Shown piece after piece: positions 41,762 through 52,291 of a DNA stretch of 64,000 nt. The notes under the pieces are model-generated. The model was not told where the DNA came from, searched no databases, and saw only the letters and a list, made by a program, of their open reading frames with translations. Made by a program: the position numbers and the translations under genes. Position 1 is the stretch's first letter. Each line of letters begins with the position of its first letter. Source of the DNA: Halostagnicola sp. A56 (lineage in GTDB: Archaea > Halobacteriota > Halobacteria > Halobacteriales > Natrialbaceae); the NCBI RefSeq assembly GCF_000691505.1, contig NZ_JMIP02000017.1:248001-312000 (forward strand), written 5' to 3'.

Positions 41762-41991
41762 TCAGGTAACGGATACGATGGCATGCGTGATAAAGGTTGG
41801 TCCGGTCGACAAACGCAGCGGTCCTCAAATACACCTGAATTCTACTATTCTTTAAATGGGATAGATGGTACCCTAAGCGCTAACTCGGTAAGTCGGTAGC
41901 CGAACGAAAGGCTTAGGAGAATTATCTCTGGATCCCCCACGACTGTTTTATTTATGTATTATTACTTCCCACGTTATTGTTCGCTGTTGCT

Positions 41992-44018
41992 ATGGGAAAT
42001 AACCACAGGCATAGCAGGATTGCACAGGAGCCAACTATCGATCGGCGAACCGTCATGAAAGCGAGCGCGGCGCTCGGAACGCTCGCGCTCTCGGGAGCAA
42101 CCCTCGGAACGACGGGCGTACGGGCGCTCCCCGATAACCCCGAAACCGACGAAGAAACCGTCGCCTTGCAGATGTTTCACCGCGAGTGGACCGAAATCGA
42201 ATCCCGAATCCCTGACATCGCCGACTCGGGATTCGACGCCATCTGGGTTCAGCAGCCAGCCGAGATGAAACTGGACTGGGACAACCTCACCTACGACGGG
42301 ACGATGGGATTCTACGACGAGGTTGGCCCCTACGGACACCGCGATCCGCACCCGCCGATCGGCTACCAGCCGGTCGATCTGCGGAACTTCGACTCCTCGC
42401 TCGGAACGGAAGGCGAACTCGAGTCGCTGATCGAGACCGCTCACGACCACGATATCGAGGTCATCGTCGACACCGTACTCAACCACATGGCCAATCCCGA
42501 CGGACCCGACGGACGGGTCGACTGGCCCCAGTTCGACGAGAACGAACACTTCCACGACAACGGAACGCTCGGCGACGACTGTCAGGTAAACGGCGAGGCG
42601 GCAAACTACGAGTGCGATCTGCTCGGCCTCCCCTCGCTGGACGTCGAGCATCCCGAGGTCCAGTCGGCCCACGAGGCCTACATCGAGAAGATCGCAAGTC
42701 TGGGTGCCGACGGCCTGCGCTACGACGCGGCCGCACACGTCTGGCCGTGGTATTTTGCGGAGAACGTCAATCCGCTGGCGGACGACCTCGGCCTCTGGCG
42801 CGTCGCGGAGGTCTGGGAAGAAAGCGATATCGACGGTTTGCTCGAGTGGGCCGACACGGGTATGACCGTCTTCGACTTCCCGCTTCACTCGGCCATCTCC
42901 GACGCATTCGAGAACGGTAGCATGGAGAACCTCTCACAGAATTCCGCCCCGGGCGTCGCCCACCGGGACCCGAGCGTCGCGGTCACGTTCGTCCAGAACC
43001 ACGACGCGGTCGGTCCGGGGGTCCACCCGACCGACGACGCAGCGACCGTCCCGGAAGGTCGCGCGGTCGAACTCGCGGAGGCGTTCATCCTCGCGTACGC
43101 CGGTATGCCGATGATTTACCGGTCGGGCCCCGAGGAGTACCACGAACTCGAGGACGACGATCTGTCCACGCTCGTTACGATCTCGAAGGAGTTCGCCCGC
43201 GGCGAGGTCATCGACCGCGACGTCGGTATCGACCACTACGTCTTCGAGCGAGAGGGGAACCTCCTCGCCGGGATCAACAAAGGCGGTCAGCCCAGGTCGG
43301 TCGCAGTCGACTCGTCTTGGGCCGATACCGTTCTCGTCGACGCCACCGGGACCGGCGACGATCTCGAGGTCGGCTCAAGCGGCGAAATCACCGTCGAAAT
43401 TCCGGCTGAGGGATACGTCATGTACGTCGACGACGCGGATCCAATCCCCGCGGAGCGTGGCGTTTCGTTCGACTCGCTCGAGTATACCGTCGACGAGGCC
43501 GAATCCGTCGACATCGGCGTCACAGCCAGCGCCGGAGACGAACCGCTCACCGCGGACGTGACGCTCGCAGTCGACGGAACCGAGGAGGCGACCCAGGGCG
43601 TCGACCTCGACGCCGAATCGTCGACAGCAGTCGAATTCGAACTCGGAACGGCCGATCTCGACGACGGCGAATACGACCTCGAGGTCGCCATCCCCGACGA
43701 CTCCGACACCGCCACGCTCCTCGTCGGAAGCGAAGCCGACGGCGGCGACCTGACGCTTCGGACGACGGTCGACGTCGGATACGGCCAGTCGGTCTACTTT
43801 ACGGGAAGCACCGACGAACTCACCGACTGGGGCGGTGGTATCGAAGGCACCTGGTCGGAGGGCAACGTCTGGGAAGTCACCGTCGCCGATCCCGGTGAAT
43901 TCGAGTGGAAGACTCGCCGTGGCCCGTCGGGCGAGAGCGGCGAGGTCTGGGAGCGCGGCGATAATCACGATCACACCGACCTCGATCCGTCCCATCAGGC
44001 TGGGCGGACGACGCCTGA
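41992..44018 (+). CDS. Secreted GH13 alpha-amylase with C-terminal CBM20-like starch-binding domain (3' frameshift)
   Basis: An exported glycosidase with a Tat signal at about residues 18-45 (IDRRTVMKASAALGTLAL). The four GH13 regions are present: IEVIVDTVLNHMANPDG, ADGLRYDAAAHVWPW (nucleophile Asp), LWRVAEVWEESDIDG (acid Glu) and VAVTFVQNHDAVGPGVH (Asp). An all-beta domain follows, then a CBM20-like module (GYGQSVYFTGSTDELTDWGG, NVWEVTVADPGEFEWKTRRG, WERGDNHDHTDLDPS). As read, the frame continues to 44397 and into the next gene. One G restored near 43998-44000 gives HQGWADDA and a stop at 44016-44018, for 675 residues. A TTTTATTTA box at 41946-41954 precedes the ATG at 41992. It degrades starch outside the cell. 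Confidence 0.88.
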
Positions 44019-44176
44019 CCGACCGCTCCGATCGCAGCTTCGAGCGACTGCTGGTCTCGCTCGAGGACGACCGACCGAGGCCGCGCTGGTGACCGCCGGG
44101 CGCGACTCTCGAAAACGGCCGACCGGTTCCTCCCGGTTCTCGCGCTTTTATGCGGTTGTGTGTCGAACGAGATCGT

Positions 44177-45148
44177 ATGCGAGCTATCGAAGTTCCAGCG
44201 TACGGAGAGAGCGACGCGCTCGAGGTCGTCGATGTCGAAACACCCGAGCCGGGCCCGGGCGAGGTTCGGATCGAGATCAAAGCCGCCGGGATCAACTTCG
44301 CGGACATCATGCAACGACGTGGCGTCTACCCCGGCGGACCGGACGCGCCGTACACGCCCGGCATGGAAGCCGCGGGAACGATCGACGAGGTTGGTGAAGG
44401 CGTCGACCTCGAGGCGGGCGACCGCGTCGTCGCAATGCTCGAGACCGGCGGCTACGCCGAGTATGCGACCGCGAACGCCCAGATGCTGTTCCCGATTCCC
44501 GAGGGGATGAGTTTCGAGGAAGCCGCCGGGTTCCCCGTCCAGTTTCTCACCGCCCACGCCTGTCTGTTCGAGTGGGGCGACCTGGAGGCGGGCGAATCGG
44601 TCCTGATACAGGCCGCGGCGGGCGGCGTCGGCACCGCCGCGGTGCAACTCGCCTCCCGGGCCGGTGCCGAGGTCTTCGGGACCGCGAGCACGCAGGAGAA
44701 ACTCGAGCTCGCGGCGGACCTGGGCTGTGACCACCCGATCCAGTACACGGAGGTCGACTTCCGGGACCCAATCGCTGAAGCGACCGACGACGAGGGCGTC
44801 GACCTCGTCCTCGAGAGCGTCGGCGACGACGTGTTCGATCGCAGTCTCGACGCGCTCGCGCACTTCGGCCGACTCGTCACCTACGGCGTTGCGAGCGGCG
44901 TTCCGGCCGAGGCTGAGAACCGACGGCTCCTCTTCGAGAACAAGAGCGTCCGCGGGTTCCACCTCGGACAGGCCGCCGCCCACGATCCGAGCAGGATCAT
45001 GCAGGCCGTCCCGGAACTCACCGAGGGACTGCAATCCGGCGAACTCGAGGTCGTCCTCGGCGAGTCGTTCGCGCTCGAGGACGCGGCCGAGGCCCACCAG
45101 TACATCGAAGACCGGAAGAGTTCGGGAAAAGTCGTTTTGAAGCCGTAG
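44177..45148 (+). CDS. NADPH:quinone oxidoreductase (QOR-type MDR)
   Basis: A 323-residue zinc-free medium-chain dehydrogenase starting MRAIEVPAYGESDALEVVDV. Motifs: IKAAGINFADIMQRRGVYPG (classic QOR), GMEAAGTIDEVGEGVDLEAG, AAGFPVQFLTAHACLFEW, VLIQAAAGGVGTAAVQLASR as the NADPH loop, and VDLVLESVGDDVFDRSLDAL. It ends with KSSGKVVLKP. It probably reduces quinones or alpha,beta-unsaturated carbonyls, protecting against oxidative damage. The upstream amylase frame overlaps this gene only because of its frameshift. Confidence 0.9.
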   Translation: MRAIEVPAYGESDALEVVDVETPEPGPGEVRIEIKAAGINFADIMQRRGVYPGGPDAPYTPGMEAAGTIDEVGEGVDLEAGDRVVAMLETGGYAEYATANAQMLFPIPEGMSFEEAAGFPVQFLTAHACLFEWGDLEAGESVLIQAAAGGVGTAAVQLASRAGAEVFGTASTQEKLELAADLGCDHPIQYTEVDFRDPIAEATDDEGVDLVLESVGDDVFDRSLDALAHFGRLVTYGVASGVPAEAENRRLLFENKSVRGFHLGQAAAHDPSRIMQAVPELTEGLQSGELEVVLGESFALEDAAEAHQYIEDRKSSGKVVLKP

Positions 45149-45224: not shown

Positions 45225-48200
45225 TCACTGCCGGGTTTGCCCGCCGTCCGCTTCGATCGAGGACTCGTCCTCGAGCTCTGGAGCCGCGTCTCCGTCGGGA
45301 CCACACCCGAGCGAGCGGTGCGGACAGAACTGACAGTGCGGCCCCGGCGTCGTCTCAGCGAACGTCGGCTCGTCGATCGACGCGAGCGACTCGCGGACTG
45401 CCGACCAGTCGGGGCGCTCCGCCGGCTCGAGGAGTTCGACCCGCGGTCCGTCGACATCTCCCACGTAGACGTACCCGACCCCAGCGATCGGTTCGTCGAA
45501 CGCCCGCTCACAGGCTCGAGCGTACACCGAGAGCTGGACGGCCTCGGTCGGATCGATCCGGTCGGCCGTCGCCTTGTAATCGAGGACGATGAGCCCGCCC
45601 GAGGGGGTTCGTTTGATCGAATCGACGTAACCGACGACGTCGCCGGCAACTCCCGAAACGTCCTCGAGGACGAACGGCAGTTCGGCAGCGACGGTCTCCC
45701 AGTCAGCGACGGGGTCCTCGAACATCGAGGCTTCGACCTCGAAATAGCGGTCGATACACGCAGAGATCGCATCGCGGTACTCGAGGGCGTTTCGCGCGGC
45801 GAGCCGCCTGCTGGCCGCGTCGTGCCACTCCGCGCGTGTGTCGTAGCCGCGGTGAAACGCCTCCTCGGCGACGGCGTGGAAGATCGATCCGACGAGACGG
45901 CCGTCGGTCCGGGCATCAGCTGCTGTCTTCGAATCTGGCTGTGCGGTCTCGCGATCGCTCTCGGCCGATCGAACGGGATCGCCGGGCGCTTGCACGACGT
46001 GATCGAGATAGTGCTTTCGAGCGCAGGTTTCGTGGGTCGCCAGCGCGGAGTAACTGTGACGCATCGTCGCCTCGAGATCCGAGAGCGACGAGAGCGTCTC
46101 GACGGGGAACCGGACCGTTTCGGTCGTCAGCGCGCTCGCCTGGCGGGTCGTCGGCACGTCGAAGTCGTCGCCGACTCCCACACTGCCCGCGGCGTCGGCG
46201 GCCGGAAGCAACTGCCCGTCGCGAACCAATCGACCGAGGTGATGGACCCGCTCGATCGCCGCCCGCGTCTCGAGCGGTTCGACCCGCCGGTCGTCGTTGT
46301 CCTGGTAGTACGTGATCGTCCCCGGATTCTCGTGCGCACTCGTCTCGAGTGCGCCCGTCCAGTCGACGACTGTCTCCGGATACCGCTCGCGGACGGTATC
46401 GAAGCTCTCGGCGATCGTCGACCAGAGGTCCATCCGCTTTCCGGCCACGGACCACTCGATCTCGTCGGCGAGACAGGATTCGGCGGCCGAGACAGACACT
46501 TGTGTTGCGTCGCCGTCGTAGTCGTACTCCGAACCGAACACGAGCAGGTGGTTCTCGGCTCGAGTCAGGGCGACGTGGAGCACGCGCCACTCCTCGCCAA
46601 GCGGTTCCGCCGCGAGATTGGCGAGCAGCGGCGAGTCGACGTCGTCGTCGAGCGTCGCCTCGAGGAGTCGGTACCGGTTGCGGCGGGCATAATCGCCGTC
46701 GACGCACCACTCCTCGTCCGAGAGGAAGGGGACGAGGACGGTGTCGAACTGGAGGCCCTTCGCCTGGTGGACGGTCATCACGTCGACCCGGTCGCTCGAG
46801 CGAGCGCCACGGTCGGTCGACGACTCGCTCGCGCGGAGCGTGCGTTCGAGGGCGTCGACGAACCGCGACGTGAGCGACGTAAGCACCGAATCGCCGTCGT
46901 ATCCCTCGACGAAGCGCTCGAGTCGCTCGAGTTCGGTGCGTTCCGCCGCCGTCAGGAACCACTCGAGGTTCGTCCGTTCCCGGAAGCGTCGAACGAACTC
47001 CGAGAGCGGATAGACGTCTCGAATCGACTCGAGCGCCTCGAGGTGGTCTCGGGCCCGCGCGAGCCTGTCGACGGCCTCGACCGGAGGCTCGTCGTCGCCG
47101 GCCGGATCGGTCGCCACACCGGTCTCGAGGTCACAGTCGAACAGCGCGTCGTACAGTGAGTCGCTCCGGCGCGCGAGCGTCTCGAGGTCCGATTCGGGTA
47201 TTCGATAGCGAAAGAGCAACACCCGCCAGAGGTGTGCATCGGCCGCTTGGTCGACGAGCACGCGGAGATACGAGAGCACGGTCTGTATTCCGGGGTGGAT
47301 CTCACCTCGTGGCGAGCCGGAGACGGCGAAGGGGATGCGCCGACTCTCGAGTTCGTCGGCGACCGCCTGGGCCTGCCGGTTCGTCCGAACGATGATCGCG
47401 ACGTCCTCGAGCGAGCGCCGCGGGACGTTCTCGAGGCGGCCGTTGAGCAGCCGGGCGGTCGCTTTGGCCACCTGCTCGGGCGTCGACCAGGGCAGTTCGT
47501 CGCTCTCGACTTTCAGCAGCCGGTGGGGCGGATCCGGCTCGTCGTACTCGCCGGGAGCCCGGTCGTTCTCCCGGAGCGTCTTCGACTCCTGAGGTCCGTA
47601 CGAACAGTTGTTCGTCAGGTCGAGGATCTCCTGGCGCGACCGGAAGTTCAACTCGAGTTCGACCGACTCGAACCCGTCGTCGGTGTTCGAAAGGCGGTCG
47701 AGACCCTCGCGGTCGGTGCCTCGCCACCCGTAGATCGCCTGATCCTTGTCGCCGATAGCGAGCAGATCCGGCCGGCTTTCGCCCTCGGTGAGCGCTCGAA
47801 TGAGCCTGAACTGCGTCTCGTCGGTGTCCTGGAACTCGTCGCAGTAAACGTGGTCCCAGCGGGTCGCGATCTCGTCGGCCACGGAGTCGGTTTCGGTGAG
47901 CAAGCCCGTCGCCGTCCGAACGAGTTCGTCGAAGTCGACGGCGTCGTCGCGCGCTAACCGCTCCCTGTAATCCGCGTAGACGTCGGTGTAGTGGCGCGCG
48001 AGTCGCAGGAACTCGACGTAGTGTTTCAACCGGCCGAACGGCGTCTGCTCGAGTCTACCCGTCGAGTCGCCCCATATTTCGTTCCCGAACAGCGCTCGCG
48101 GCAGGTGTTTCGTCGTCGGCTCCTCGAGCGATATCGTCTCGAGCGTATTTGTCACGCACGTCTGGAGCGCCCGCAGGTACGCGTCGATCGTCTCGACGAC

Positions 48201-48953
48201 CGAGTCAGACCGAAACTCGCTCGGCGCTTCCGCGATCTTCTCCCGACAAAAGCCCACCAGCTTGCCGTACTCGATCAGCGACTCGCGAGCGGCCTCGAGG
48301 TGCTCGGGGTCGTTGAAGTACCGAAACGCCTCGTTATCGAAGGAGAACTCCTCTGCGGCCGTCTCCTCGAGCCAGAGGACGAACTCGGAACACAGCTCGA
48401 GGGTGCGAACCGACGGCAGTCGCGACGCGAGCGCGTCGGGATCGATATCCTCCTGGCTCATCGTCGCGACGAACCAGTCGATGGCGTCCGCGAGGTCGGC
48501 CGGCGAGCCGTCGCCGCGAGCGGGGGCGGCCGCGAAATCGTACTCCGTTTCGGCGAGGAGTCGGCCGACGATTCGTCGTCGCTTGCGTTCGGTCACGACC
48601 TCGAACTCCGGCGAGAGCCCGAGATAGTAGGCGTACTCGCGGACCAACTCGTAACAGAACGAGTGGTAGGTGTAGACGTCGATCGCCGCCGCAGCCGCCG
48701 GGTCGAGCCGTTCTGCGACCGCTTCACGGATGCTCGAGGCGGCCTCGTTCGCGAAGGTGAGTACCAGCACGTCCTCGGGGTCGACCGCCCCACTATCGAT
48801 CGCCCGCTCGATCCGCATGAGCATCGTCGTCGTCTTCCCGGTTCCGGCGCCCGCGTCGACGGAGATCGACACGCTCTCGCTCTCGATGACCCGCCGCTGA
48901 TTGCCCTTCGGCTCGAGCGGCTCGTCTCTCTCCGGGTCAGGTCGATCAGCCAT
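45225..48953 (-). CDS. AddA/RecB-like UvrD helicase with C-terminal Fe-S PD-(D/E)XK nuclease
   Basis: A 1242-residue SF1A helicase-nuclease. Walker A is SVDAGAGTGKTTTMLMRIER (residues 31-50). Further helicase motifs are VYCDEFQDTDETQFRLIRAL (motif II), GDKDQAIYGWRGTDREGLDR (III), MTVHQAKGLQFDTVLVPFLS (V) and RVLHVALTRAENHLLVFG (VI). The C-terminal ~270 residues are a RecB-family nuclease: HETCARKHYLDHVVQ, GSIFHAVAEEAFHRGY, VVGYVDSIKRTPSGGLIVLD with the following YKAT (Asp and Asp-x-Lys active site), and CQFCPHRSLGC closing an iron-sulfur cluster with the first Cys. It is last of three overlapping genes. Together they match the parts of AddAB, which processes broken DNA ends for recombination. 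Confidence 0.88.
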   Translation of the reverse strand: MADRPDPERDEPLEPKGNQRRVIESESVSISVDAGAGTGKTTTMLMRIERAIDSGAVDPEDVLVLTFANEAASSIREAVAERLDPAAAAAIDVYTYHSFCYELVREYAYYLGLSPEFEVVTERKRRRIVGRLLAETEYDFAAAPARGDGSPADLADAIDWFVATMSQEDIDPDALASRLPSVRTLELCSEFVLWLEETAAEEFSFDNEAFRYFNDPEHLEAARESLIEYGKLVGFCREKIAEAPSEFRSDSVVETIDAYLRALQTCVTNTLETISLEEPTTKHLPRALFGNEIWGDSTGRLEQTPFGRLKHYVEFLRLARHYTDVYADYRERLARDDAVDFDELVRTATGLLTETDSVADEIATRWDHVYCDEFQDTDETQFRLIRALTEGESRPDLLAIGDKDQAIYGWRGTDREGLDRLSNTDDGFESVELELNFRSRQEILDLTNNCSYGPQESKTLRENDRAPGEYDEPDPPHRLLKVESDELPWSTPEQVAKATARLLNGRLENVPRRSLEDVAIIVRTNRQAQAVADELESRRIPFAVSGSPRGEIHPGIQTVLSYLRVLVDQAADAHLWRVLLFRYRIPESDLETLARRSDSLYDALFDCDLETGVATDPAGDDEPPVEAVDRLARARDHLEALESIRDVYPLSEFVRRFRERTNLEWFLTAAERTELERLERFVEGYDGDSVLTSLTSRFVDALERTLRASESSTDRGARSSDRVDVMTVHQAKGLQFDTVLVPFLSDEEWCVDGDYARRNRYRLLEATLDDDVDSPLLANLAAEPLGEEWRVLHVALTRAENHLLVFGSEYDYDGDATQVSVSAAESCLADEIEWSVAGKRMDLWSTIAESFDTVRERYPETVVDWTGALETSAHENPGTITYYQDNDDRRVEPLETRAAIERVHHLGRLVRDGQLLPAADAAGSVGVGDDFDVPTTRQASALTTETVRFPVETLSSLSDLEATMRHSYSALATHETCARKHYLDHVVQAPGDPVRSAESDRETAQPDSKTAADARTDGRLVGSIFHAVAEEAFHRGYDTRAEWHDAASRRLAARNALEYRDAISACIDRYFEVEASMFEDPVADWETVAAELPFVLEDVSGVAGDVVGYVDSIKRTPSGGLIVLDYKATADRIDPTEAVQLSVYARACERAFDEPIAGVGYVYVGDVDGPRVELLEPAERPDWSAVRESLASIDEPTFAETTPGPHCQFCPHRSLGCGPDGDAAPELEDESSIEADGGQTRQ

Positions 48954-49971
48954 CGAATCCCACCTCCCGGGAGAGATACCGCGGACAACAGACCGCGTAG
49001 GCGCAGTCCGGACACGAGTTGGTCTCGATCTGGTCCCAGCCGCCCGCCGGCTCGCGGCGCTCGGAAACGATATCGTCGACGACGCTCGCGAGCCGTTGCT
49101 CGATCGTTTCGTTCCGGTGTTCGTGTGTCATACCGAACGTGTGGTGGTCGAGAAAGACATCGGTCAGGTCGATCGGATCGACGCTCGTCTCGACTGTTTC
49201 GCTGACCCAGTTGACCGAGTTTCGGGAGCGATCCGCGAGCGGGATCAGGACGTATCGACAGGTCCGGCCCTCGAGTCCGAGGCGATCACACAGCCCCCGG
49301 AGCCCGTCGAGAACGGCAGCGGTCTCGAGTAACGTCCCCACCGGGCCCGGTTCGAAAGTCGAGTCGTCCGGATCGAAGTGATCCGAAAACAGTTCGGCGA
49401 CATCGCCCTCCCAGTCCGATCGATAGCGTAGGAGCCCCAGCGAGTCGGCCGTGGGGACGAACCGAACGCCGACGAGTGAGGCGCCGTCGCCGACGACGTA
49501 ATCGACCGACGACTCGAGGGTCACCGATCGGGAGGCCGCCGCTTCGTCAGCCGGAATCGAAACCGTCGACGATAGCGAGAGCGCCGGGCCGATCAGTTCG
49601 CCAACGGTGCTCGTCGATCGAAGTTCGTCGATTCCGGCCGCGTGGGTCGTTCCGACCGCCTCGACGTATGCTCGGACGGTCGCCTCGAGCACTCGGCGTT
49701 CGAACCGGCGCTGTGCCAGCGAGTGAAAGCGCTCGTCGTGTTCGCTCCAGAGCGTCGCGAGTCGCTCGAGCATCGCTTCCGCAAGGGAGTCGCACTCGAG
49801 TTCGCCCGTTCGCAGGCCGTCACAGATCGCGCGACGAACCAGATCGACGCGGTCGCTCGAGTTGGACTCGGCCGTCGGGTGACGAACTCCGTCGACGTGG
49901 GCAAACGCGTAGCGGCGCGGACAGCGCAGATACGTCTCGAGCGCCTCGACAGAGAGCGGACGACTACTCAC
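48946..49971 (-). CDS. AddB-like nuclease-domain protein with Fe-S cysteines but no visible PD-(D/E)XK active site
   Basis: A 341-residue protein. The start SVEALETYLRCPRRYAFAHV has C17 in the setting typical of AddB, Cas4 and RecB nuclease domains. The end has NSCPDCAYAVCCPRYLSREV with C320, C323 and C328 or C329, the matching C-x2-C-x4/5-C of an iron-sulfur nuclease. In the middle, where the active site should be (a beta hairpin of form GxxDxxxx..DxK), the sequence is LESSVDYVVGDGASLVGVRF, with Gly-Val-Arg in place of Asp-x-Lys. It therefore appears to be structural rather than catalytic. It overlaps its neighbours by eight bases on each side. Confidence 0.72.
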   Translation of the reverse strand: MSSRPLSVEALETYLRCPRRYAFAHVDGVRHPTAESNSSDRVDLVRRAICDGLRTGELECDSLAEAMLERLATLWSEHDERFHSLAQRRFERRVLEATVRAYVEAVGTTHAAGIDELRSTSTVGELIGPALSLSSTVSIPADEAAASRSVTLESSVDYVVGDGASLVGVRFVPTADSLGLLRYRSDWEGDVAELFSDHFDPDDSTFEPGPVGTLLETAAVLDGLRGLCDRLGLEGRTCRYVLIPLADRSRNSVNWVSETVETSVDPIDLTDVFLDHHTFGMTHEHRNETIEQRLASVVDDIVSERREPAGGWDQIETNSCPDCAYAVCCPRYLSREVGFDG

Positions 49972-52291
49972 GACTTACCTCCCCCGCGGCGAACTCGAAC
50001 TGAGAGACGACCGCCTCGGCGAGTTCCTCGTCGATGTCGCCGTCCTCGAGAAGGACGGCGATCTCTTCGAACAGCGCCTCGGTTTCGGCGAGGTCCGCGT
50101 CGCCGCCGGTGCTTGCCTCCCTGAGAATGCGATCCAGTTCGCCGCGGGGCTGCTCGAGCAGCGCCTCGAGCGCGTTCGATTCGCCGTAGATTTTCGCTTC
50201 GCGACTCGTCACGTCGACATCCTCGAACGAACAGGTGGAGGCCTGCTCGAGGAACTGCAGGTATCGCGATTGCTCGTGGGTCCGGCGGAGTCCGCCCGAG
50301 CCGCGTTCGTACGAACAGCAGTACAGCCGCTCGGTGGCCGCGCGGGTGCCGACCGCCAGCCGTCGCCGGGCACGCTGGGCGTGATACGTCTCGAAGGGGT
50401 CCGAAACTGACTCGCCGTCGGTTATCGGTTCGAAAGTCCGCTCGAGTACCGCCGGAGCCGGATCGGTCACAGCCGGATAGTGGGCCATCGTCCGGAGCCA
50501 GGCCGTCGGAAACAGGTTCGTAAGCGAGGGGTCGCCGGGGTAGTTTCGCTCGATCAAATCGAGCACGAAGACGACGGCGTGTGGGTCGTACGCCAGGTCG
50601 TCGATCGCACAGACCGTCACCCCGCCTGTCGGCGTCCGAGCGTCGACCGTGTGGACGTGTGGCGCGTCGTACCTGATGGTCCGCTCGAGCATGCGACGGA
50701 CACCCGCCCAGTCGGGGCCGACGAGGTCGGTCGTCTCGACGAAGCGGGCGATCTCGCGCACGCGACGAACGCCGGCGAACTGCTCTCTGGCGTCGACCCA
50801 CTCCTCGCGAGCAATTCGACCTTTCAGGTCCGTCCGGGTGAGCCAGCGTTCGATCGAGCGCGCGACGCTCGGCCCGTCACACGCCTCGAGGAGTTCGGTG
50901 GAAAAATCGTCGACTCGAGCCGCGAGACGATCGTACGCGACGACTTTCGAGTCGTTCGCTCGAGTGTCGCGTGCTCGAGCCGCGTCAGGACCGCGACGAG
51001 CGTCGGCAAGCGCCCCCGATTCGCGGGCTGACTGGAGGGTAACGAACGCGTAGAGTTCGTTGACCGCCGGGTCCTCCGCGAGCGAGGGGACGCCGAGAGT
51101 GGCAGTCGGGACGGATGCCTCTCGGAGACGCGTCCGCGTTTCGGGCACCCGTTCGACGCGAGGGACGGCGACCGCCACGTCATCGTATCGAACGTCGTCG
51201 CGACGGTCGAGGAGGGACTGAATCTCCGTCGCGACCGCGTCGATCTGCTCGCGGCGCGTTCGGGTCCGAATACGTCGCGCGGTGTCAGGTTTGGTGTCGG
51301 TAGCAGCCGAATCCGCAGTTCGTCCGGTCGCGAGAAACTCAGTGATCCGTCGGTGCGGGGGCGACGCGTCAGTCGGACGATCCAGATCGGCGTCGAACGG
51401 GGCCTCCTCGACGGATTCGATCGCCAGGCCGTCCGCGATATCGGCGAGCGAGCCGGGTTCGACGCGGGTTCGCTCGGTGCTCGCGTGGGGTTCGCCCAGA
51501 CAGACCAGCGTCGCGTCCTCCGAGAGCGCCGCGAGATACTGCCGGTCGAGACGGCGAAACTCCTCAAACTCGAGGGCCAGCACCGCGTCGAAGGAGGCGG
51601 TGACGCGGGTCCGGACGCCGTCTTCGTCGGCCTCGAGCAGATCGACGGCTCGCGGAACGACATCGGCTCGTTCGACGTACCCTCGATCCGCGAGTTCCTC
51701 GTGAAACCTGTCGTTCATCGCGTAGAGGAACTCGAGACAGTCGTGGAGCTCCCCGGGCTGGAGAGCTGTCTCGGAGGAAGGGGCGTCAGTACCGTCCTCA
51801 GCGAGCGAGAGTCGCTGTCTTGTCGCCTCGAGCAGCAGCTGACCCACATCGCGGGCAAAGCTCTCGTGGTCGGCCGCCCGCTCGAGGTAGGGCGGAATAT
51901 CCCGACTCGCGCCGTCGATCACCAGCGAGATGAGTTCGATCCGTTCTTCGTACTCGAGGCGATCGAGCGTCGGGTCGTACTCCTCGAGCACTTTCGAGGC
52001 GTGTTCGGGCAGGGACTCGAGACGCGGCGAGTGAGGGCCGGCGGTCGTCGCGTTCTCGTCCGAGGCCGTCGAGTTCCTATCCGGGGCGGGGCTGCCAGTC
52101 GCGCTCTCGCCCGAAAGCGCCTCGCGAACGCGCTCGAGTCCGGCGGGGTGGCGCTTGACGACGAGGACGTTTTCCGCGCCGTACTCCGCACAGAGCGCGC
52201 CGTATTCGGCGGCGACGATCTCGAGAATGTCGCTTCGAAGCGTCGGCAGGACTTTGAGCGTCCCCTCGAGGCGGTGGGCGGTTCCGGTCAT
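49964..52291 (-). CDS. AddB-like helicase-fold subunit lacking a Walker A motif
   Basis: A 775-residue acidic protein, first of the three-gene operon. The N-terminal strand GAENVLVVKRHPAGLERVRE sits where a P-loop strand would be but has no GxxxxGK(T/S). Later segments look like an SF1 helicase core: FDAVLALEFEEFRRLDRQYL with ALSEDATLVCLGEPHASTER (motif II/III-like), RREQIDAVATEIQSLLDRRD with YDDVAVAVPRVERVPETRTR (domain 2 re-entry, as in AddB and RecC), and VTVCAIDDLAYDPHAVVFVL (motif V-like). No nuclease domain follows; that is supplied by the next gene. The likely role is DNA binding or Chi-like sequence recognition within the complex. No family name is recognised with certainty. Confidence 0.65.
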   Translation of the reverse strand: MTGTAHRLEGTLKVLPTLRSDILEIVAAEYGALCAEYGAENVLVVKRHPAGLERVREALSGESATGSPAPDRNSTASDENATTAGPHSPRLESLPEHASKVLEEYDPTLDRLEYEERIELISLVIDGASRDIPPYLERAADHESFARDVGQLLLEATRQRLSLAEDGTDAPSSETALQPGELHDCLEFLYAMNDRFHEELADRGYVERADVVPRAVDLLEADEDGVRTRVTASFDAVLALEFEEFRRLDRQYLAALSEDATLVCLGEPHASTERTRVEPGSLADIADGLAIESVEEAPFDADLDRPTDASPPHRRITEFLATGRTADSAATDTKPDTARRIRTRTRREQIDAVATEIQSLLDRRDDVRYDDVAVAVPRVERVPETRTRLREASVPTATLGVPSLAEDPAVNELYAFVTLQSARESGALADARRGPDAARARDTRANDSKVVAYDRLAARVDDFSTELLEACDGPSVARSIERWLTRTDLKGRIAREEWVDAREQFAGVRRVREIARFVETTDLVGPDWAGVRRMLERTIRYDAPHVHTVDARTPTGGVTVCAIDDLAYDPHAVVFVLDLIERNYPGDPSLTNLFPTAWLRTMAHYPAVTDPAPAVLERTFEPITDGESVSDPFETYHAQRARRRLAVGTRAATERLYCCSYERGSGGLRRTHEQSRYLQFLEQASTCSFEDVDVTSREAKIYGESNALEALLEQPRGELDRILREASTGGDADLAETEALFEEIAVLLEDGDIDEELAEAVVSQFEFAAGEVSRE

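What the first reader, a model, noticed from the sequence alone, without database searches (positions are those of the whole stretch)
45225..52291. Three-gene split AddAB-like recombination machine in an archaeon
Three overlapping genes (8-base overlaps at both junctions) encode, in order of transcription, a helicase-fold protein without Walker A, a separate Fe-S nuclease-fold protein, and an active UvrD-type helicase fused to an Fe-S PD-(D/E)XK nuclease. The last corresponds to AddA. The first two together correspond to AddB cut between its helicase-like and nuclease domains. Archaea are usually thought to resect ends with HerA-NurA and Mre11-Rad50, so an AddAB-type enzyme with a divided AddB would be a distinct end-processing system and might recognise a Chi-like sequence.
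Basis: partly seen in the sequence, partly recalled or inferred. Interest (0 to 1): 0.8.

Follow-up and report, generated by a model that had tools for sequence, protein, structure and literature searches.

The report
Split RecBCD/AddAB-like machine in haloarchaea
A salt-loving archaeon carries a conserved three-gene set that looks like the bacterial machines that chew back broken DNA ends, but with one of the usual subunits cut into two proteins, so it is a candidate DNA-end processor in organisms where that enzyme is not settled.

Summary
The three overlapping genes exist as described (45225-52291, minus strand, 8-nt overlaps). They occur together, in order and on one strand, in 70 of 70 loci examined (chosen by a match to the 775-aa protein; two of the 70 are the same plasmid); that protein matches 139 of 391 Halobacteria genomes. 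The architecture is of RecBCD/AddAB/AdnAB type: an active UvrD-type helicase with a PD-(D/E)XK nuclease (1242 aa), a helicase fold without Walker A (775 aa) and a separate Fe-S-type nuclease fold (341 aa). The last two align in order to the two halves of a fused haloarchaeal AddB. Three corrections: (1) the window's genome also encodes fused AddB and AddA, the fused AddB matching 95 of 391 genomes; (2) the 341-aa nuclease has lost its D-x-K catalytic residues here and in its clade, but keeps its four cysteines; (3) the 1242-aa helicase lies outside the AddA/RecB clade and has its own cysteine motif. The nuclease-dead clade includes a Natrialbaceae set with housekeeping neighbours; nuclease-intact loci often lie near defence genes (17 of 29). 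Best reading: an ATP-dependent, end-resecting helicase-nuclease, a new three-subunit variant of a known kind. Complex formation, activity and Chi response are untested.

The parts
49964..52291 (-). First gene, 775 aa: helicase-fold protein without Walker A; AddB/RecC-like N-terminal part
   Evidence: profile hits B. subtilis AddB 3u44_B E 3.8e-9; Walker A in 0 of 32
48946..49971 (-). Second gene, 341 aa: stand-alone Fe-S-type PD-(D/E)XK nuclease fold, AddB C-terminal-like; catalytic D-x-K lost here
45225..48953 (-). Third gene, 1242 aa: active UvrD-type helicase fused to PD-(D/E)XK nuclease with its own four-cysteine motif
49964..49971 (-). 8-nt overlap of genes 1 and 2
48946..48953 (-). 8-nt overlap of genes 2 and 3
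48831..48854 (-). Walker A (AGAGTGKT, residues 34-41) of the 1242-aa protein
   Evidence: A34, A36, G37, G39, K40, T41 invariant in 20 rows; pattern in 20 of 20
47829..47840 (-). Motif II D372-E373-F374-Q375 of the 1242-aa protein
   Evidence: D372, E373, Q375 invariant; F374 nearly invariant
45573..45581 (-). Nuclease motif D1125-Y-K1127 of the 1242-aa protein, intact
   Evidence: invariant in 20 of 20
46023..46025 (-). First cysteine C977 of the 1242-aa protein
   Evidence: 20 of 20
45303..45335 (-). Cysteines C1207-x2-C1210-x6-C1217 of the 1242-aa protein
   Evidence: 20 of 20 each
49921..49923 (-). First cysteine C17 of the 341-aa protein
   Evidence: 25 of 25
48985..49014 (-). Cysteines C320-x2-C323-x5-C329 of the 341-aa protein (same spacing as fused haloarchaeal AddB C1014-C1017-C1023)
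   Evidence: 24, 25 and 25 of 25; AddB 16 of 16
49501..49503 (-). D157 of the nuclease core of the 341-aa protein, retained
   Evidence: 71 of 71 rows
49456..49464 (-). R170-F171-V172, where intact relatives have D-Y-K: catalytic pair lost
   Evidence: D-Y-K in 29 of 71 rows

Best explanation
The operon encodes a three-subunit ATP-dependent DNA-end helicase-nuclease of the RecBCD/AddAB/AdnAB type. The 1242-aa subunit is the 3'-to-5' SF1A motor and carries the working nuclease. The 775-aa subunit is an inactivated helicase fold that holds the complex and the second strand, as AddB and RecC do. The 341-aa subunit is the AddB nuclease domain made as a separate chain, folded round an Fe-S cluster, which in this clade has lost catalysis and serves as structure or DNA guide, as the corresponding domain of RecC is recalled to do. 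The complex would load on a double-strand end, unwind it and degrade DNA, giving single strands for RadA (or destroying foreign linear DNA). Shown here: the gene set, its conservation, domain identities, motif states and family position. Inferred: complex formation, polarity, resection, Fe-S occupancy, the cellular role.
For: Linkage in 70 of 70 loci, tandem on one strand. Domain identities. Core motor and nuclease residues of the 1242-aa protein invariant in 20 of 20. Cysteine spacing of the 341-aa protein equals that of fused haloarchaeal AddB. The 775-aa family groups with AddB against all active motors in the tree (98/98), and a grouping with the 1242-aa family is rejected (p-AU 0.012). 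In the Natrialbaceae loci the dead nuclease subunit is conserved about as well as its 775-aa partner (mean column identity 65% against 68% in 27 rows each), which suggests that it is kept for a non-catalytic role.
Against: No biochemistry. The structure models are weak (mean pLDDT 51.6 and 53.6). Direct profile-to-sequence scores of the 775-aa family on AddB are low (median 8, maximum 30 bits); its best outside match was single-chain UvrD-Cas4-like proteins (median 78 bits), so the AddB likeness rests on profile-profile alignment and a tree where long branches meet (flagged). The system is patchy (139 of 391 genomes; one sampled genome of the window's own genus, G020, has no match), so it cannot be the general haloarchaeal resection enzyme. 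Two plasmids have incomplete sets: DL31 has the third gene with no annotated partners, beside a transposase, and pHLAC01 has only a fragment of the first; Halobacterium DL1 has a shortened third gene.
Confidence: 0.75

Rival explanations
1. It is an anti-virus or plasmid-borne defence nuclease first, and only secondarily a repair enzyme: it destroys linear foreign DNA.
For: In the nuclease-intact clade 17 of 29 loci have at least one neighbour from six gene clusters whose one scanned member matches PADLOC models: prokaryotic Argonaute, DrmB, methyltransferase, CARF-PIN, PDC-S01, PDC-S27; these six were found among nine neighbour proteins that I picked for scanning. A plasmid copy lies in a stretch with a BREX-5 gene. 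16 plasmid records match the 775-aa protein.
Against: The window's own copy belongs to the other clade, where a CBS gene recurs in 26 loci and uvrA in 13. Of the 12 neighbour clusters seen in at least five nuclease-dead and no nuclease-intact loci I scanned one member of 10: one PADLOC match, UvrA to mad3, a likely cross-match. None of the six defence-type clusters occurs in the 40 'lost' rows, whose other neighbours were not scanned.
Confidence: 0.25
2. The 1242-aa protein is a stand-alone UvrD-Cas4 fusion of the kind described in 2017, and the two upstream proteins are accessory factors rather than an AddB equivalent.
For: Its best-scoring outside sequences here are single-chain proteins of 1018-1046 aa in same-phylum genomes (median 352 bits against 229 for haloarchaeal AddA), which I label UvrD-Cas4-like by their domains; the one printed has the same kind of cysteine motif in its nuclease. 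The published family is described as monophyletic and defence-linked (PMC5704561, section 8 read).
Against: Linkage with the 775- and 341-aa proteins in 70 of 70 loci and their order-preserving alignment to AddB halves.
Confidence: 0.15
3. It is an ordinary AddAB whose addB gene was split by one event in haloarchaea, with no further change.
For: Order-preserving alignment to fused AddB and to AddA.
Against: The 1242-aa family lies outside the AddA+RecB clade (100/98; 97/97; 95/91 and 96/97) and has a four-cysteine nuclease that haloarchaeal AddA lacks; fused AddB and AddA coexist in the same genome. AdnB and bacterial AddA were not in the trees.
Confidence: 0.15

Closest known systems
AddAB (RexAB), helicase-nuclease of many bacteria; a two-gene form is also in haloarchaea
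   Same: Active SF1 motor with nuclease plus inactivated SF1 fold with Fe-S nuclease; CX2CX5C spacing as in the fused haloarchaeal AddB (and, recalled, B. subtilis AddB)
   Different: AddB made as two proteins; 1242-aa subunit outside the AddA/RecB clade and with its own cysteine motif; AddB-type nuclease dead in this clade; no Walker A, as in fused haloarchaeal AddB (0 of 16), whereas B. subtilis AddB has an ATP site (PMC4824097, passage)
RecBCD
   Same: Inactivated helicase fold without Walker A (RecC, recalled); only one working nuclease in this clade
   Different: The two flanking genes are a CBS-domain and an alcohol-dehydrogenase-like gene, not RecD; RecC-like part in two chains; 1242-aa subunit outside the AddA/RecB clade
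AdnAB (mycobacteria)
   Same: UvrD-type motor plus nuclease; the profile of the 1242-aa nuclease domain hits AdnA and AdnB best (2.6e-6, 2.1e-5)
   Different: AdnA is one chain with motor and nuclease (recalled); here the inactive motor and its nuclease are two chains. AdnA and AdnB could not be put in the trees
UvrD-Cas4 fusion family (PMC5704561)
   Same: Single chain UvrD helicase with Cas4/RecB-type Fe-S nuclease; proteins of this architecture are the best-scoring outside matches of the 1242-aa family
   Different: Described there in restriction-modification or Dcm contexts, stand-alone or in non-conserved contexts; here linked to two further genes in 70 of 70 loci
Gabija GajB (PADLOC hits)
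   Same: UvrD-type helicase core
   Different: No PADLOC family in the two partner proteins; GajB has no C-terminal nuclease (recalled)

Membership tests
AddAB | AddA-type subunit: SF1A motor with C-terminal PD-(D/E)XK nuclease | tested here: met
AddAB | Active subunit falls in the AddA (AddA/RecB) clade | tested here: not met
   references were haloarchaeal AddA and E. coli RecB only
AddAB | AddB is one polypeptide with inactivated motor and nuclease | tested here: not met
   All three genes in 70 of 70 loci; the first stop lies at or before the start of the 341-aa match in all 70 within 5 nt
AddAB | AddB-type Fe-S cysteines C...CX2CX5C | tested here: met
   C17, C320, C323, C329; cluster occupancy not testable
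AddAB | AddB nuclease catalytic residues present | tested here: not met
   D-Y-K in 29 of 71 rows, lost in 40, partly lost in 2; lost in the window
AddAB | AddB helicase fold groups with AddB | tested here: inconclusive
   98/98 with AddB but long branches meet; unresolved when AddB is left out; hhalign E 2.6e-16
AddAB | Chi recognition and ionic latch | not testable with these tools
   Model too weak
RecBCD | RecD subunit encoded with RecB and RecC | tested here: inconclusive
   Flanking genes resemble the CBS and alcohol-dehydrogenase clusters, not RecD; not searched genome-wide
AdnAB | Two paralogous subunits, each with motor and nuclease in one chain | tested here: not met
   Inactive motor and its nuclease are separate chains
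AdnAB | Active subunit in the AdnB clade | not tested
   AdnB sequence not obtained; profile score 236 bits, below PcrA at 310 and above AddA at 222
UvrD-Cas4 fusion | UvrD motor fused to Fe-S Cas4-like nuclease | tested here: met
UvrD-Cas4 fusion | No AddB-like partner genes | tested here: not met
   70 of 70 linked
Gabija | GajA OLD-type nuclease beside GajB | tested here: not met
   PADLOC scan of the other two proteins gave no family

The most novel reading that the evidence does not exclude
A fourth class of end-processing helicase-nuclease beside RecBCD, AddAB and AdnAB: it has three separately encoded parts and split early into two lines. One line is mobile, sits near defence genes and has two live nucleases. 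The other includes the chromosomally inherited Natrialbaceae set and has only one, so that a destroyer of foreign DNA was turned into (or came from) a housekeeping resection enzyme, paralleling AddB and RecC.
Probability: 0.35. Interest if true: 0.8.

Novelty: new variant of a known kind. Interest (0 to 1): 0.62.

Why it matters
How haloarchaea make long 3' single strands for RadA is not settled. A review of Haloferax volcanii says HerA and NurA are absent there, and the passages seen name Mre11-Rad50 for resection (PMC7776575); [quoted passage not shown] Two AddAB-like sets, together matched in 203 of 391 class genomes, give named genes to delete in laboratory strains. The sharp split into a nuclease-intact line often near defence genes and a nuclease-dead line with a chromosomal branch (tree) offers a natural test of what the second nuclease of AddAB is for.

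Tried and rejected
Rejected: 'defence system Gabija' or Argonaute partner for the window copy (no GajA family in the partners; housekeeping neighbours). Rejected: frameshifted single addB, since the genes are separate in 70 of 70 loci. Rejected: 'the three-gene set replaces the two-gene AddAB': the two occur independently (31 of 391 genomes match both, 33.8 expected, Fisher p 0.54; with a stricter cut of the AddB hits 24 against 30.2, p 0.13; some fused-AddB hits are fragments). Led nowhere: viral-contig scans with the 775-aa and 1242-aa alignments (0 relatives and 1 weak relative); PDB profile search with the 341-aa alignment (0 hits at E 0.1); PDB search with the window's 1242-aa nuclease domain as a single sequence (one chance hit); PDB search with fused AddB as a single sequence (0 at E 0.1); fold search with the 341-aa model (best E 0.064, AddAB chain A); profile comparison with E. 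coli RecC as a single sequence (Prob 2.4). The Rad50 hook model found nothing in the genome, but it also did not ring in Haloferax volcanii, so it says nothing. Literature searches on AddAB, RecBCD or resection with archaea or haloarchaea: (nine) showed no description of this gene set in the listings and passages seen; only open-licence papers are held. One PADLOC-like context test is partial: only 9 picked neighbour proteins of divergent loci (one of them from a nuclease-dead locus) and 10 of the nuclease-dead group were scanned.
Full report
OBSERVATION. The three minus-strand ORFs are as reported: 775 aa (52291 to 49964), 341 aa (49971 to 48946) and 1242 aa (48953 to 45225), with 8-nt overlaps at both junctions. 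The genome is a Natrialbaceae archaeon near Halostagnicola (closest named locus L022, 76% identity). The window lies on contig C9 of an assembly given as 83.69% complete. Pfam finds UvrD-helicase, UvrD_C and PDDEXK_1 in the 1242-aa protein, PDDEXK_1 in the 341-aa protein and nothing in the 775-aa protein.

CONSERVATION. The 775-aa protein matches 139 of 391 genomes of the class, in 51 of 86 genera. I examined 70 loci in detail: the 26, 40 hand-picked places favouring divergent ones, three plasmid loci and one more genome (L139). L082 and L100 are the same plasmid (identical rows), so 69 are distinct. All were chosen by a 775-aa match, so linkage is conditional on that. A fourth plasmid locus (pHLAC01) has only a fragment of the 775-aa gene and none of its partners annotated; it is not among the 70. 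By single-sequence search the 341-aa gene was missed in 2 of the 40 divergent loci (L078, L082); by profile all three genes are present in 70 of 70, on one strand and in separate frames in 70 of 70. As the reverse test, 15 plasmid records hold at least 80% of the 1242-aa protein: 14 of them are also in the 775-aa list. The exception, DL31, has a transposase just upstream of the gene and, further upstream, DUF87 and NurA-domain genes. One record with the 775-aa gene, Halobacterium DL1, has a shortened third gene.

WHAT THE 775- AND 341-AA PROTEINS ARE. A profile of 32 members of the 775-aa family hits, among solved structures, UvrD1 (1.2e-9), B. subtilis AddB (3.8e-9), PcrA (6.6e-7) and, weakly, AdnA (0.004). 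A Walker A pattern is found in 0 of 32. Against an alignment of 16 fused haloarchaeal AddB proteins it aligns to residues 17-562 (Prob 98.7, E 2.6e-16), and the 341-aa family aligns to residues 706-1023 (Prob 97.7, E 1.9e-12). The order is that of AddB, cut between its motor-like and nuclease parts. Of 25 members of the 341-aa family, 12 match the cas4 model and 2 match addB_alphas; the window's own matches neither. Its cysteines (C17, C320-x2-C323-x5-C329) have the spacing of the fused AddB (C721, C1014-x2-C1017-x5-C1023). Structure models used a shallow alignment of 27 near relatives and are weak (mean pLDDT 51.6 and 53.6). The 775-aa model still matches UvrD/PcrA, AddA, AddB, AdnA and RecB chains (E 3.4e-12 to 2.2e-6 over the 50 listed), which shows the SF1 fold but does not pick AddB. 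The 341-aa model gives no match at E 0.001 (best 0.064, AddAB chain A).

THE 1242-AA PROTEIN. The core of Walker A, motif II (D372, E373, Q375) and the nuclease residues H1026, D1111, D1125, K1127 and Q1140 are invariant in 20 of 20. It has its own four cysteines (20 of 20), for which 14 haloarchaeal AddA proteins show no counterpart. Profile-profile alignment with AddA is near full-length (E 2.1e-78). Yet in the four trees that hold both, haloarchaeal AddA and E. coli RecB form a clade that excludes it (100/98; 97/97; 95/91 and 96/97). Its place relative to UvrD/PcrA and the UvrD-Cas4-like proteins changes between trees. Its best-scoring outside sequences are single-chain proteins of 1018-1046 aa in same-phylum genomes, which I label UvrD-Cas4-like (median 352 bits; AddA 229, RecB 144). 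Among solved structures its profile scores PcrA 310, AdnB 236, B. subtilis AddA 222 and RecB 144 bits. The nuclease domain alone matches AdnA and AdnB best. AdnB could not be included in the trees. The 775-aa family groups with AddB against all active motors (98/98); grouping with the 1242-aa family or with the UvrD-Cas4-like proteins is rejected (p-AU 0.012 and 0.022). The program warns that long branches meet there, and with AddB left out the 775-aa family falls in an unresolved fork with the 1242-aa and AddA/RecB groups.

A DEAD NUCLEASE IN THIS CLADE. Across 71 rows (70 loci plus the window) H110 and D157 are kept in 71, the four cysteines in 70, but the D-x-K pair is intact in only 29, half lost in 2 and lost in 40, including the window (R-F-V). 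On a quick tree of the 1242-aa proteins the intact rows form one side of a branch (support 99) and the lost and half-lost rows the other: one switch explains the pattern. Since the 1242-aa nuclease residues are intact in both, the window's complex should have one working nuclease, as RecBCD has (recalled).

SURROUNDINGS. Neighbour clustering (an in-house gene caller that found the third gene in 70 of 71 loci) shows recurring housekeeping neighbours in nuclease-dead loci: a CBS-domain gene in 26, uvrA in 13 (Pfam names of one member each). Three of these loci are in records titled chromosome (L006, L017, L027). The two half-lost loci, which are near-copies of each other, have a DrmB-like neighbour. 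Among nine neighbour proteins that I picked, mostly from the nuclease-intact clade, six match PADLOC models: Argonaute, DrmB, type II methyltransferase, CARF-PIN, PDC-S01, PDC-S27. Their clusters occur in 17 of 29 nuclease-intact rows, in the 2 half-lost rows and in none of the 40 lost rows; other neighbours were not scanned gene by gene. As a control, 10 of the 12 clusters typical of nuclease-dead loci were scanned by one member each: one PADLOC match, UvrA to mad3. At least three intact copies are on plasmids.

A SECOND SET IN THE SAME GENOME. Contig C14 encodes a fused AddB of 1066 aa and contig C7 an AddA of 1213 aa. The fused AddB matches 95 of 391 genomes (some hits are fragments) and 49 plasmid records, among them Halobacterium salinarum R1 pHS3, where addB and addA overlap by 8 nt in a region that also has BREX-5 pglZ. 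In the other 23 loci with a fused addB that I read by script (L115-L117, L119, L121-L138, L140), an addA match follows in all 23, cut by the end of the locus in some and short in L122; in the window's own genome the two lie on different contigs, addB at a contig end. The two systems occur independently (both in 31 of 391, 33.8 expected); 203 of 391 match at least one.

HOW IT PROBABLY WORKS. Inference from the families: the 1242-aa motor moves 3'-to-5' from a DNA end, the 775-aa subunit takes the other strand, the nuclease of the 1242-aa subunit cuts, and the 341-aa subunit serves as an Fe-S-held platform. In AddAB the inactivated helicase domain scans for Chi and carries the latch (PMC4824097, passages read). 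Whether the 775-aa protein scans for any sequence is unknown.

LITERATURE. PMC7776575 (passages) states that HerA and NurA are not present in H. volcanii. [quoted passage not shown] Against both, the NurA model is over its cut-off in the window's genome and in the H. volcanii control. PMC7521656 (passage) says no Chi or similar signal is known in Haloferax. PMC5704561 (passages, and section 8 read) describes UvrD-Cas4 fusions and names no AddB-like partner in that section. PMC6343036, PMC10117719 and PMC9051519 (passages) speak of AddAB in bacteria; the hit in PMC6063281 was a person's name; the searched terms of PMC8708640 gave only a reference. I found no description of the three-gene set or of haloarchaeal AddAB in the searches listed under Tried and rejected; most subscription papers are not held.

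VERDICT. A real, widely conserved, new three-subunit variant of the RecBCD/AddAB/AdnAB kind. Its claims of an AddA subunit, a working split AddB nuclease and a sole AddAB-type system need correction.

Noticed in passing
G000 C14:109013-112213 (L104:7014-10214) and C7 (L112:7942-11583): The same genome also encodes a fused AddB and an AddA; 16 of 49 plasmid records with this fused AddB are over 90% identical to it across haloarchaeal genera, as if recently mobile.
   Followed up: partly
G000 C9:242693-243655, about 4 kb before the window: A NurA-family gene over the curated cut-off; the same model is over its cut-off in the Haloferax volcanii control, although two papers say nurA is absent or not apparent in halophiles.
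   Followed up: no
window 41977-44397 (+): An amylase-like ORF whose last part becomes strongly basic, unlike the acidic rest, as though the reading frame shifts near 44000 (by eye).
   Followed up: no
L150 (DL31 plasmid phalar01) 1-8348: The 1242-aa type gene without its two annotated partners, with a transposase just upstream and DUF87 (HerA-like) and NurA-domain genes further upstream.
   Followed up: partly
L152 (Natronomonas pharaonis plasmid PL131) 5001-5882: An unannotated stretch matching only the C-terminal part (877-1220) of the 1242-aa protein, possibly a remnant.
   Followed up: no
L075:3878-6565 and loci L081, L092, L094: A Piwi/Argonaute gene near the nuclease-intact three-gene set in four loci, with further defence-type genes.
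   Followed up: partly
L060, L061, L086, L101: A DrmB-like (DISARM) neighbour cluster beside the three genes in two nuclease-intact and two half-lost loci.
   Followed up: partly
L082:856-3003 and seven other loci: A family of about 706-715 aa whose scanned member has no Pfam or PADLOC match recurs beside the nuclease-intact set (two of the eight loci are the same plasmid); a plasmid annotation calls it tyrosyl-DNA phosphodiesterase.
   Followed up: partly
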